From contig CADAUA010000006.1 of NCBI GenBank assembly GCA_902791035.1, positions 144,457 through 201,340 of the forward strand: a stretch of DNA of 56,884 bases, in the 5' to 3' direction. Shown here one piece after another: positions 2,611 to 16,418 of this stretch (its first letter is position 1; the number at the start of each line of letters is the position of its first letter). The stretch comes from an uncultured Coriobacteriaceae bacterium (GTDB taxonomy: Bacteria; Actinomycetota; Coriobacteriia; Coriobacteriales; Atopobiaceae). Under the pieces are notes generated by a model, which ran no database searches, was not told where the DNA came from, and saw only the letters and a list, made by a program, of their open reading frames with translations. Made by a program: the position numbers and the translations under genes.

Positions 2611-4098
2611 ATGGCAAACGACCAGAGCGTGCGCGTGCGCTTTGCCCCCAGCCCCACGGGCAAGCTGCACGTGGGCGGCGCCCGCACCGCCATCTACAAC
2701 TGGGCCTTCGCCCGCGCGAACGGCGGCACCTTCATCCTGCGCATCGACGACACCGACCCCACCCGCTCCACCGAGGAGAACACCCAGATCATCCTGCGCG
2801 CCATGCGCTGGCTGGGCCTCGACTGGGATGAGGGCCCCGACGTGGGCGGCCCTTACGGCCCCTACAAGCAGACCGACCGCATGGACCTCTACCGCGAGGC
2901 GGCCGAGCGCCTGGTGGCAGAGGGCAAGGCCTACTACTGCTTCTGCTCGCCCGAGAAGCTCGCCGCCGACAAGGCCGCAGCGGAGGCCCGCCACGACCCC
3001 TTCCAGGGCTACCAGCGCACCTGCCGCAACATCGACCCCGCCGAGGCCCAGGCGCGCGTGGATGCCGGCGAGTCCCACACCATCCGCATCAAGGTGCCTC
3101 TGGACCGCGGCGACGTGGTGATCCACGACGCGGTGCACGGCGAGGTGACCTTCAACGCCAAGGAGCTGGACGACTTCATCATCTTCCGCTCCGATGGCAC
3201 CCCCACCTACAACTTCGCCACCGTGGTCGACGACGCCATGATGGGCATCACCCACGTGATCCGCGGCGACGACCACCTGTCCAACACCCCGCGCCAGGTC
3301 ATGGTCTACGAGGCCCTGGGCGCGCCCGTACCCACCTTCGCGCACATCTCCATGATCTTGGGCGCCGATGGCAAGAAGCTCTCCAAGCGCCACGGTGCCA
3401 CGAGCGTGGAGGAGTACCGCGACGCCGGTTTCCTCTCCGACGCCTTCGTCAACTACCTGGCCCTTCTCGGCTGGGCACCGGACGGCGAGACCACCATCGT
3501 GCCGCGCGACGTGCTCGCCCGGACCTTCTCACTCGAGCACGTGAGCAAGAACCCCTCGACCTTCGACCCCAAGAAGCTCGACTGGGTTCAGCAGCAATAC
3601 GTCATGACCATGAGCGACGCGGACTTCGCGCAGACGATCCTCGTGCCCGAGCTCCGGAAGGCCGGCCTCGAGGGCGAGGCCCTGTCCCACGAGGCCCATT
3701 GGTACGAGGTGTTGGCCAGCGTGCTCAAGCCCCGCACCACCATGCCCGCGGACGTTGTCGAGAAGTCCCGCTTCCTCTACGCCGGCGACGCCCTTGAGTA
3801 CGACGAGAAGTCCGTTGACAAGAACCTCCGCAAGGACTACGCGCCGGCCGCGCTCGACGCCGCCCGCGAGGCCCTGGCTGCGGTCGAGCCCTGGGAGGCC
3901 TCCGCGATCGACGGGGCCCTCGAGCCGCTGCCCGAGGCCACCGGCATCAACAAGCGCAAGTTCTACGGTGCCGTCCGCGTGGCCGAGTGCGGCAACCAGG
4001 TGTCCCCGCCCATGGGCGAGAGCCTGGAGCTCCTTGGCCGCGACCAGGTCCTGGCCCGCATCGACGCCGCCAAGGCCCTCTGCGGGACCGCGGAGTAG
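2611..4098 (+). CDS. gltX: Glutamate--tRNA ligase
   Basis: Charges tRNA-Glu with glutamate using ATP. The 495-residue length is normal. The class I signature is present as PSPTGKLHVGG near the N terminus (HIGH-type motif, residues 13-23), and the KMSKS-type loop as KKLSKRHG near residue 255. The C-terminal anticodon-binding domain follows. The genome also encodes GatCAB (40-43.4 kb), so this enzyme probably also mischarges tRNA-Gln, which the amidotransferase then corrects; that is inference, since a glutaminyl-tRNA synthetase could lie outside the window. A rho-independent terminator follows at 4169-4204. Confidence 0.97.
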   Translation: MANDQSVRVRFAPSPTGKLHVGGARTAIYNWAFARANGGTFILRIDDTDPTRSTEENTQIILRAMRWLGLDWDEGPDVGGPYGPYKQTDRMDLYREAAERLVAEGKAYYCFCSPEKLAADKAAAEARHDPFQGYQRTCRNIDPAEAQARVDAGESHTIRIKVPLDRGDVVIHDAVHGEVTFNAKELDDFIIFRSDGTPTYNFATVVDDAMMGITHVIRGDDHLSNTPRQVMVYEALGAPVPTFAHISMILGADGKKLSKRHGATSVEEYRDAGFLSDAFVNYLALLGWAPDGETTIVPRDVLARTFSLEHVSKNPSTFDPKKLDWVQQQYVMTMSDADFAQTILVPELRKAGLEGEALSHEAHWYEVLASVLKPRTTMPADVVEKSRFLYAGDALEYDEKSVDKNLRKDYAPAALDAAREALAAVEPWEASAIDGALEPLPEATGINKRKFYGAVRVAECGNQVSPPMGESLELLGRDQVLARIDAAKALCGTAE

Positions 4099-4204: not shown

Positions 4205-4264
4205 GCCTACCGCTCACGCGAGCGACGCCCATTTGCCTCGCCGGCCACCGTACGGTCGACGTGC

Positions 4265-4373
4265 GTCACGAACTTCAGGTTAGTAGAGTGTGGTCCCAGA
4301 AGTCGCAATTCTCCTACCTGCTGTTATATGAATCGCAACCATTGCTCGGCTCTACTAACCTGTAGTTCGTGAC
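4265..4373. repeat. Palindromic element, left of the endonuclease gene
   Basis: A 109-bp element with 24-bp terminal inverted repeats (4265-4288 and 4350-4373; one mismatch) containing GGTTAGTAGAG / CTCTACTAACC. Between them is a 61-nt AT-richer core. Read in reverse complement, this core aligns without gaps to the 61-nt core of the element at 5766-6034 (43 of 61 positions identical by eye), including an inner hairpin GCGATTC/GAATTGC. It ends about 120 bp upstream of the endonuclease start. Not a known insertion sequence that I recognise. Confidence 0.9.
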
Positions 4374-4495
4374 TCGCGCTCGCCCGCGTGGCCACCCACC
4401 GCCCGACCGTCGGCGGATTCCATCGTCCTTCTCGCCCCGCGCCCCTCCCTGTCGGCGTATCCTCGTCGTCCCACTGACGGCGGGAGGAGGAGCTG

Positions 4496-5695
4496 ATGCC
4501 AGAGACGACCCAAGAACCGAGAAGGGCCAACCTGCACGTCGCGCAGCCGGTCGTCGTATGCTCGCGGTCGAGCGTCGAGGCCCTCGACGTGATGCGCATG
4601 GATGTGGCCCGGCGCCCACCGGCACGCGGCACGGAGCCCGTCCGCGAGGGCTCCTTCGTGGTAACACGCGAGCTCGGTTCCTGGGGCACCCAAGACGCCT
4701 CGGCGCTCGACCGGGCTGTGGCACTCCCCCGGCCCGTGCACGTCCTGGTACCTGCAGGCGGCGGGCCCAAGCCCACGGCCCTTCTCTGCCCCCACAAGTG
4801 GAAGTTCCGCAACCCCTACGACGACCTGATCCCCTTCGACGGCGGATCCCCTCGGATCCTCGTGGCTCCTCCCGAGCTCGCCCTGCTGCAGCTCGCCGCC
4901 AGGCTCGACCGGGTACACGTGGCGGGCCTCATAAACCAGCTCGTCGGTACCTATCGCGTGATCCGTCCCCAGGCCATCCCAACCTACCGACGGATCCCCC
5001 ACTCGAGCATCGAACTCTATCCGCGCGGCTCTACCGAGGACACCTGCATATCGGCCACGGTCTACGGGCTCAAGCCCCTCACCACCGTGGAGCGGGTCCG
5101 CGACTACGTACGAGCCATGCCATCCGCCCATGGGTCGCACCTGGTGGAGGGAGCGCTGCCGCTCGCCCACGACGGTCTGGCATCCCCGCTCGAGTCCCAG
5201 ACCTACATGCTCGCGTTCTGCTCACGCCGCCTGGGATCGCTCGGCCTGCCGATGCCAGACATAAACGGAGAGCTACCGCTCACTCCTCAGGCCCGCCGCT
5301 TTGCCAACAAGGACGTGATTATCCCCGACTTCTACTGGCCTGAGGGCCACGTGGCGCTCGAGACCAATGGCTGGCTCTACCACGGTAGCCCGCGCGCCAT
5401 TACCGGCACCTCCCTGCGCGACAAGGCCTATCGCGCCATGGGCATCACCTGCCTCACCCTCACCTCACCGGAGGTCCGCAGTGAGAACCTCTTTATGGCG
5501 GCGATGGAGGAACTGGCAGGCTATCTCGGCACGTCGATCCCACAAGGAACGGAGGCCTTCCGCCGCCAGCGGCAGCGGCTTCGCGACCAGATGTTCCCGC
5601 CGCGGAACGTCCCGGAACCCGAACCGGAGACCGACGAGGGCTATCTGGCCCAGCTCGACGCCTACGCAGACTCGTTAGCTGCGAGCGGGCGCTGA
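4496..5695 (+). CDS. PD-(D/E)XK endonuclease-like protein (DUF559/Vsr-type)
   Basis: A 399-residue protein. The C-terminal part (about 265-340) has the DUF559/Vsr-like nuclease pattern: an acidic residue in VIIPDFYW, then ALETNGWLYHG, which supplies E and the YH pair, then an RDK helix and a strand CLTLTS. The N-terminal two thirds resembles the extra region in coriobacterial endonuclease-domain proteins and AbiEi-like proteins (for example the segment around APPELALLQLAARL), but this is from memory of the family. RBS GGAGGAGG lies 5 nt before the ATG. The gene stands alone and is bracketed by two related palindromic elements in inverted orientation. It could be a nicking or repair-type enzyme, part of a defence system, or the mobilising enzyme of the repeats; the sequence does not decide between these. 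Confidence 0.75.
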   Translation: MPETTQEPRRANLHVAQPVVVCSRSSVEALDVMRMDVARRPPARGTEPVREGSFVVTRELGSWGTQDASALDRAVALPRPVHVLVPAGGGPKPTALLCPHKWKFRNPYDDLIPFDGGSPRILVAPPELALLQLAARLDRVHVAGLINQLVGTYRVIRPQAIPTYRRIPHSSIELYPRGSTEDTCISATVYGLKPLTTVERVRDYVRAMPSAHGSHLVEGALPLAHDGLASPLESQTYMLAFCSRRLGSLGLPMPDINGELPLTPQARRFANKDVIIPDFYWPEGHVALETNGWLYHGSPRAITGTSLRDKAYRAMGITCLTLTSPEVRSENLFMAAMEELAGYLGTSIPQGTEAFRRQRQRLRDQMFPPRNVPEPEPETDEGYLAQLDAYADSLAASGR

Positions 5696-5765
5696 TGGTT
5701 GCGGCTGGACTGGCCTTTCCCGGTGCGTGCGCCATGTGCGCGTGGGCCGGCTGCCCAGCCCCTGC

Positions 5766-6034
5766 GAGCTCCAGGTTAGTAGAGCTCTCCACCCACCCGC
5801 ACCCCACGAACTCCAGGTTAGTAGAGCTCTCCACCCACCCGCACCCCACGAACTCCAGGTTAGTAGAGCCATGCAATGATTACAATTCATATAACTGCAC
5901 GTAGATGAATTGCTACTCCGCAAGTAACACTCTACTAACCTGAAGTACGTCTGGCTACAGCATTACGGGGGCTCTACTAACCTGAAGTACGTCTGGCTAC
6001 AGCATTACGGGGGCTCTACTAACCTGAAGTTCGT
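5766..6034. repeat. Palindromic element with triplicated arms, right of the endonuclease gene
   Basis: Three copies of CCAGGTTAGTAGAG at 5771, 5813 and 5855, then a 61-nt core (5869-5929), then three copies of CTCTACTAACCTGAAG at 5930, 5972 and 6014. The copy spacing is exactly 42 bp in both arms. The two 28-nt spacers within the left arm are identical to each other, as are the two 26-nt spacers in the right arm, but left and right spacers are unrelated. The core carries an inner inverted repeat CAATTC (5883-5888) / GAATTG (5907-5912). The core matches the one at 4289-4349 in reverse complement. Confidence 0.92.
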
Positions 6035-8495: not shown

Positions 8496-8569
8496 TGGGA
8501 TGTCGTCTAGTGGTAGGACAGCGGATTCTGGTTCCGTCAACGGGAGTTCGACTCTCTCCATCCCAGCCA
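8496..8569 (+). tRNA. tRNA-Gln (CTG)
   Basis: Cloverleaf visible: acceptor TGGGATG/CATCCCA, starting with U as is typical for tRNA-Gln, a D arm with TAGTGGTAGGA, anticodon stem GCGGA/TCCGT with loop TTCTGGT (anticodon CTG at 8528-8530), T loop GTTCGACTC, discriminator G and encoded CCA. Confidence 0.95.
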
Positions 8570-8589
8570 CGTCCTGCCAAACTGAATAT

Positions 8590-8666
8590 GGCCCGTTCGT
8601 CTAGCGGCCTAGGACGCCGCCCTCTCAAGGCGGAGATCAGCAGTTCGAATCTGCTACGGGCTACCA
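8590..8666 (+). tRNA. tRNA-Glu (CTC)
   Basis: Acceptor GGCCCGT/ACGGGCT, anticodon stem CCGCC/GGCGG with loop CTCTCAA (anticodon CTC at 8624-8626), T loop AGTTCGAATCT and encoded CCA. It lies 20 nt after tRNA-Gln and is probably co-transcribed with it. Confidence 0.95.
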
Positions 8667-15998: not shown

Positions 15999-16314
15999 GA
16001 AGTGGGCCAGACGACCGCGGGGCTCGAGGCGACGCCGAGAGCCATGAGGAAAGTCCGGGCTCCACAGGGCAGGAAGCAGGCTAACGGCCTGGCGGGGTGA
16101 CCCGACGGAAAGCGCCGCAGAAAAGAAGACTCCCGCTGCCAGCGCGAGCTGGTGAGAGAAAAGCTGAAACGGTGGGGTAAGAGCCCACCAGCGTCGTGGC
16201 AACACGGCGGCTTGGCAAGCCCCTTCCGGAGCAAACGCAAATCTTGAGGCCTGCGGTGACGCAGGTCCTAGATAAATGGCCGTCCACGACAGAACCCGGC
16301 TCATAGGCCCACTT
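15999..16314 (+). ncRNA. rnpB: RNase P RNA (type A)
   Basis: The catalytic RNA that matures tRNA 5' ends. The termini pair (GAAGTGGGCC / GGCCCACTTC, helix P1). Conserved regions are present in order: GAGGAAAGTCCGGGCTCC (CR I), ACGGCCTGGCG, a GAAAGCGCCGCAGAAAAG segment, GTAAGAGCCCACCAGC (CR III region), GGCAAGCCCCTTCCGGAGCA and the CR V segment AGATAAATGGCCGTC with ACAGAACCCGGCT. It is 316 nt, shorter than E. coli's. Confidence 0.97.
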
Positions 16315-16418
16315 CGCATCCTTTTCTTCCAAGAACACTTGTTTGTCATCGTGCTCTGTGCTACTCTCGCAGGAACATGAGTTCCTGCCAAACGGTACGG
16401 ACGGAGGCGAACAAGGTC

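What the first reader, a model, noticed from the sequence alone, without database searches (positions are those of the whole stretch)
4265..6034. Endonuclease gene bracketed by two related palindromic elements
The DUF559/Vsr-like endonuclease gene (4496-5695) lies alone between two elements that share 24-bp-type GGTTAGTAGAG arms and a 61-nt core, placed in opposite orientation. The same arms are not seen elsewhere in the window. Known REPIN systems pair palindromic repeats with a flanking RAYT transposase; here the enzyme has a PD-(D/E)XK nuclease pattern instead. If the nuclease acts on or mobilises the repeats, this would be a new type of repeat-enzyme partnership. A simpler reading is that the gene is a defence or repair enzyme and the repeats are unrelated passengers.
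Basis: partly seen in the sequence, partly recalled or inferred. Interest (0 to 1): 0.82.

Follow-up and report, generated by a model that had tools for sequence, protein, structure and literature searches.

The report
Nucleases bracketed by private palindromes
In a bacterium of the same family as an Olsenella, a gene for a predicted DNA-cutting enzyme sits between two palindromes whose arms recur in nine other elements of the genome, and dozens of related genes lie between matching repeats of their own, so these enzymes likely recognise, and would spread, their own private repeats.

Summary
Two palindromic elements (4267-4371; 5763-6034, the second with 3+3 arms) bracket ORF 4496-5695 in opposite orientation. 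It is not a local oddity: the arms form 11 elements in the genome, nine away from the gene. A core motif shared by these elements has 49 genome hits (control 2), 33 of them between inverted arms of several types. Three arm types bracket three different paralogues; a fourth lies on one side of a fourth. In 15 genomes, 37 of 79 family genes share 16 nt or more between their two flanks, against 1 of 598 mismatched pairs and 4 of 82 other ORFs; 20 held-out genes gave 7, against 0 of 380. The C-terminal domain has the Vsr/I-Bth0305I endonuclease fold with invariant catalytic-type residues. It is not a RAYT, and RAYT-type genes were not found in four of the genomes. My reading: a REPIN/RAYT-like partnership built on an unrelated enzyme, with arms as private address and core as common part. 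Association is shown; recognition and mobilisation are inferred. Against: over half the genes show no bracket, the core is detectable in only 8 of 19 bracketed loci elsewhere, no target duplications, no clean empty site.

The parts
4260..4288 (+). left arm of element 1 (inner 12 nt AGGTTAGTAGAG)
   Evidence: (I2)
4289..4349 (-). 61-nt core of element 1; model R1 match 4305-4342 on the - strand
4350..4378 (-). right arm of element 1
   Evidence: I2
4496..5695 (+). 399-aa protein; residues 229-346 predicted Vsr/EDxHD-type endonuclease fold; S230 P231 E233 D278 E289 H296 R308 invariant in 16 of 16 aligned family members
5763..5868 (+). three tandem left arms of element 2 at 42-nt spacing
   Evidence: D2, D3
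5869..5929 (+). 61-nt core of element 2; model R1 match 5876-5913 on the + strand
5930..6034 (-). three tandem right arms of element 2 at 42-nt spacing
   Evidence: D1

Best explanation
The gene encodes a predicted Vsr-fold endonuclease that likely recognises the arm sequence of the two palindromic elements on either side of it and probably drives the slow spread of that element through the genome, as RAYT proteins are thought to do for REPINs but with an unrelated enzyme. Shown: the gene belongs to a multi-copy family, about half of the examined members in its taxonomic family are bracketed by gene-specific paired repeats (in 24 of 80 loci clear palindromes on both sides), the arms recur in other intergenic elements of the same genome, and elements with different arms share a core motif. 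Inferred: the variable N-terminal part binds the arms (private address), the C-terminal nuclease nicks or cuts at or near the element (the core may be the common processing site), repair or replication then makes new copies, and gene duplication followed by divergence of specificity gives each paralogue its own arm type.
Against: No binding, cutting or movement has been shown. 42 of 79 genes, 13 of 20 held-out and 8 of 10 further loci, nine of these ten from other families, show no shared flank at this threshold. The core is not detectable in 11 of 19 bracketed loci outside G000. The main dispersed arm type of G044 has no partner among the 15 family loci checked there; own classes D and F have none; class C is a single dispersed element matched over 13 nt. 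No target-site duplication: 0 of 29 elements with >=5 nt at assumed borders. The one cross-species comparison tried did not give a clean empty site. Two unrelated genes (Fic and NCS2 permease by eye) are bracketed too, so bracketing is not exclusive.
Confidence: 0.5

Rival explanations
1. Operator reading: the protein is an AbiEi-like DNA-binding autoregulator, the flanking palindromes are its operators and the dispersed copies form a regulon.
Against: Elements lie downstream as well as upstream of the genes. 15 of 32 elements lie between convergent gene ends, though not significantly more often than other window gaps (6 of 22, p=0.12). The downstream neighbour of the window gene is a pyroglutamyl peptidase on the other strand, not a toxin. 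Nuclease residues are invariant. A shared core with differing arms is not expected of operators.
Confidence: 0.2
2. The elements are moved by another enzyme (a RAYT/Y1 transposase or a site-specific recombinase acting on the core) and the nuclease gene is cargo between two copies, like the Fic gene.
For: The core is shared by elements with different arms. Fic and NCS2-permease genes (named by eye) are also bracketed. Five Y1_Tnp matches exist in the window's genome.
Against: Y1_Tnp was not found in G004, G064, G075 and G028; the first three carry the core, although the G064/G075 elements lack simple arms. Cargo would not explain why each paralogue has its own arm type.
Confidence: 0.12
3. RNA reading: the elements are transcribed, the long hairpin with its conserved core is a structured RNA, and the protein processes or is controlled by that RNA.
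For: Both window elements fold far better than shuffles (z -5.0 to -7.7 over the two strands). The core is conserved where arms are not.
Against: The arms account for the folding: core-only z is +1.6 to -2.0. An inner stem and a G-U strand bias were not clearly above slid controls. No Rfam family at the elements at gathering scores.
Confidence: 0.12
4. Coincidence or passengers: the gene is an ordinary defence or repair nuclease and the repeats are unrelated.
For: Many family members have no bracket.
Against: 37 of 79 against 1 of 598 and 4 of 82; held-out 7 of 20 against 0 of 380; arm-to-gene matching within genomes.
Confidence: 0.03

Closest known systems
REPIN-RAYT systems (PMC3116915; passages seen)
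   Same: Short extragenic palindromic doublets in inverted orientation, dispersed in the genome, with related copies in the DNA flanking a protein-coding gene that is thought to act on them; private repeat family per gene.
   Different: The enzyme is a predicted Vsr-fold endonuclease, not a Y1 HUH transposase; 3 to 16 family matches per genome in the 14 genomes, many with their own arms; elements with different arms share a core.
EDxHD homing endonuclease I-Bth0305I and Vsr endonuclease
   Different: Free-standing gene with a long N-terminal part; no intron family found by Rfam in the window; bracketed by gene-specific palindromes.
AbiEi-family antitoxins (Rv2827c; PMC7319586 passages)
   Different: No toxin gene next to it; repeats on both sides and dispersed; nuclease domain attached.
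MITEs of insertion sequences (recalled)
   Same: Terminal inverted repeats, short, many solitary copies.
   Different: No target-site duplication seen in 29 elements; arms vary between types while the interior core is shared.
DUF559 / MTES_1575 proteins of other Actinobacteria
   Same: C-terminal domain (Pfam DUF559 in 3 and MTES_1575 in 4 of 16 members).
   Different: The listed matches outside the order cover mostly the C-terminal half of the profile; shared flanks in 1 of 15 loci (2 of 17 skipped for short flanks).

Membership tests
REPIN-RAYT | Partner gene is a Y1 HUH transposase (PF01797) | tested here: not met
   Window protein: no Pfam hit, Vsr-type fold. PF01797 found in 11 of 15 genomes, not in G004, G064, G075, G028.
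REPIN-RAYT | Palindromic repeats in inverted pairs, extragenic and dispersed | tested here: met
   11 class-A elements, 10 of them with exactly 61 nt between arms; 33 of 33 elements examined lie outside called genes, one without a full neighbour call.
REPIN-RAYT | Repeat family matches the flanks of its own gene | tested here: met
   33 of 43 elements in G000 at >=16 nt; 6 of 33 in other genomes.
REPIN-RAYT | GTAG- or CGTC-tag at one end of each palindrome (title and start of abstract of PMC3733652) | tested here: inconclusive
   The core contains GCAGGTAG, but not at the foot of the arms.
MITE | Target-site duplication | tested here: not met
   0 of 29 elements with >=5 nt at assumed borders.
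EDxHD homing endonuclease | Vsr-like catalytic fold | tested here: met
EDxHD homing endonuclease | Gene inside a self-splicing intron or intein | tested here: not met
   Rfam gathering scan of the window shows RNase P and two tRNAs only; complete free-standing ORF.
AbiEi antitoxin | N-terminal winged HTH plus AbiEi C-terminal domain | tested here: inconclusive
AbiEi antitoxin | Operon with a nucleotidyltransferase toxin | tested here: not met
   At the window locus the next gene downstream is a pyroglutamyl peptidase on the opposite strand.

The most novel reading that the evidence does not exclude
A family of Vsr/EDxHD-fold endonucleases in Coriobacteriales, each driving a private population of palindromic elements: a mobile or domesticated DNA partnership outside the DDE, HUH, tyrosine and serine recombinase classes, in which the arms are a fast-evolving address and the shared AAnCnGCAGGTAG core is the common processing site.
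Probability: 0.35. Interest if true: 0.93.

Novelty: categorically new. Interest (0 to 1): 0.85.

Why it matters
If the enzymes act on their own palindromes, this is an independently invented counterpart of REPIN/RAYT and shows how short repeats can persist in bacterial genomes without a known transposase. It would also give a natural series of dozens of enzyme-address pairs, a ready system for learning how a Vsr-type nuclease acquires a long DNA specificity. Even if mobilisation fails, gene-specific repeats around a large orphan nuclease family are a pattern that I did not find described; only search listings were seen for this (open-licence papers only).

Tried and rejected
Arm-pair pattern in 84,980 species genomes and in viral contigs: 0 matches, with near relatives possibly left out; core pattern in viral contigs: 0. 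Rfam: nothing at the elements at gathering scores. RAYT as common driver: disfavoured because no match was found in four of 15 genomes. Inner RNA stem and strand bias: inconclusive. Target-site duplications: none. Empty site by comparing L147 (G044) with G016: the segment holding element, permease, element and a TetR-like gene (names by eye) is missing, but the borders do not coincide with the elements, so it proves nothing. Orientation of cores in bracket pairs: mixed. Convergent placement is not significantly above window gaps (p=0.12). Protein homology search returned only 8 and 11 proteins because of its word limit. A fold of the N-terminal part alone was not obtained. A family that is not listed is not excluded by it.

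Core test: I first ran it on 25 hand-chosen loops of 44 (14 reached <=10/200 shuffles); I replaced it by all 35 loops of 24 nt or more (13 did) and quote the latter.

Rows dropped: 8 of 49 core hits were left out of the model and of later counts, for lack of arms or coding-like context; 36 of the other 41 were aligned. Locus L192 (contig end) and one locus with too little flank were left out; one own paralogue at a contig end and the two found later (L265, L266) are not among the 79. One search listed well over 100 gene hits in 14 genomes; 69 of them plus 11 own loci (80 in all) were examined first, then 20 more as held-out genes.

Full report
What is there. ORF 4496-5695 lies between element 1 (arms 4260-4288 and 4350-4378, core 4289-4349) and element 2 (5763-6034: three arms, a 61-nt core, three arms, at 42-nt spacing). 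The arm AGGTTAGTAGAG occurs eight times in the window with up to one mismatch, all in the two elements, with 0.02 expected. The elements are related and opposite in orientation.

The elements are a genome-wide family. The 13-mer CAGGTTAGTAGAG occurs 27 times in the own genome and its reversed control 0 times. These resolve into 11 elements, two at the gene and nine elsewhere; 10 of 11 have exactly 61 nt between the arms. The conserved middle of the core, TATAAYNGCAGGTAGAYGA, with up to three mismatches, gives 49 hits against 2 in the control. Of the 49, 33 lie between inverted arms scoring 13 or more, and the arms fall into several types: A (the window's), B (TGTCACTTGCAGGTG type), C (GACGTCAAATC...), E (GAAATAACGGACAGA...), and small types D and F.

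Arm types go with paralogues. The family has 14 profile matches in the genome. The closest paralogue (49% identity; L036) has type-B elements on both sides. A paralogue on contig 15 has type-C arms on one side. Type E had no partner among the first 12 paralogues; the later profile search found two more, one of which (L265) has type-E arms on both sides. Types D and F remain without partners.

It is not confined to this genome. In the Olsenella RUG161 genome the homologue (50% identity) is bracketed by two 83-nt copies, 94% identical, of a quite different palindrome, with arms at three further places. A family profile found members in 14 of 14 chosen genomes, 3 to 16 matches each. Taking 79 loci from 15 genomes, I asked for the longest exact run shared by the two 600-nt flanks of each gene: >=16 nt in 37 of 79 (the window is one of them), against 1 of 598 pairings of one gene's upstream with another gene's downstream flank in the same genome, and against 4 of 82 other ORFs, two of these four being at element-bracketed genes. 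Twenty further genes of the same taxonomic family, from genomes already in use, gave 7 of 20 against 0 of 380 mismatched pairs. Ten more loci, nine of them from other families of the order, gave 2 of 10 (both in other families), and DUF559-type loci of other Actinobacteria 1 of 15. With the stricter demand of palindromes on both sides with shared arms, 24 of 80 loci qualify. So the bracket is a strong feature of one bacterial family and not of every gene in it.

Dispersed elements match genes of their own genome. Comparing element arms (core masked) with flanks of family genes: >=16 nt shared in 33 of 43 elements of the own genome and 6 of 33 of other genomes, against 1 of 693 element-genome comparisons with other genomes. 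These rows are not independent, because elements of one type count many times; by type, four of six own types have a partner (A, B, E at >=16 nt, C at 13 nt). In G044 the main arm type has no partner among the 15 loci checked.

The core is shared across arm types. In the own genome it defines the search. Outside it, a matrix trained only on own-genome cores reaches <=10 of 200 shuffles in 13 of 35 loops (24 nt or longer) of all gene-bracketing palindromes found, in 8 of 19 loci; the other 11 loci show no detectable core. In 150 relatives, 47 have a core-model hit at E<=0.01 and 11 at E<=1e-4; 120 of 150 have the protein family at E<=1e-25. All 11 strong ones are among the 120, none among the 30 (p=0.08). 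Weak hits included, the counts are 43 of 120 and 4 of 30 (G113 counted as lacking the family by elimination, the list being cut).

How it most likely works. The arms have the properties of a private protein-binding address, and the core those of a part common to many elements. The elements lie between genes (33 of 33 examined, the window's two included; of 32 with both neighbours called, 15 convergent, 11 tandem, 6 divergent), as REPs do. The economical reading is that each nuclease recognises its own arms and that element copies arise through its activity. Binding, cutting and copying are all inferred. No target-site duplications were found, and no clean empty site.

Comparison with the known. 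REPIN/RAYT is the nearest in behaviour (abstract and passages of PMC3116915): inverted palindromic doublets, extragenic, dispersed, and repeats in the DNA flanking each RAYT. The defining enzyme is absent here and the Y1 family was not found in four of 15 genomes, so this is not a REPIN-RAYT system even if it works like one. Text searches for the obvious word combinations showed no prior description in the listings seen; subscription literature was not covered.

Noticed in passing
L047:4546-6000 (G000:C2:110544-111992): A Fic-family gene (named from its sequence by eye) is also bracketed by two class-A elements, in the same orientation.
   Followed up: partly
L147 (G044:C55:10253 and 11941): An NCS2-type permease gene (named by eye) lies between two elements; this segment plus a TetR-like gene is missing in G016.
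   Followed up: partly
G064 and G075 loci L154-L159: Core-bearing elements without simple arms, with a second GCAGGTAG-like copy upstream and a GACTCANAAGGGTCA-like motif downstream in several: an apparently separate element type.
   Followed up: no
L185, L245, L266: Gene-flanking repeats with a second shared core resembling CAACAAAAGCCCAGTTG.
   Followed up: no
L160, L178, L182: Small hairpins of the type CTACCTGCGGTT...AACCGCAGGTAG built from the core motif alone.
   Followed up: no
L036:1430-1840 and 3217-3870: Type-B arms next to the closest paralogue are multiplied in tandem and some are themselves palindromes of about 30 bp.
   Followed up: partly
window 15999-16319, 8496-8663: RNase P RNA and two tRNA genes.
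   Followed up: no
L050:4783 region (G000:C13): A class-A element sits inside a flanking inverted repeat, so that its stem is longer than in the other copies; possibly an insertion in a terminator loop.
   Followed up: no
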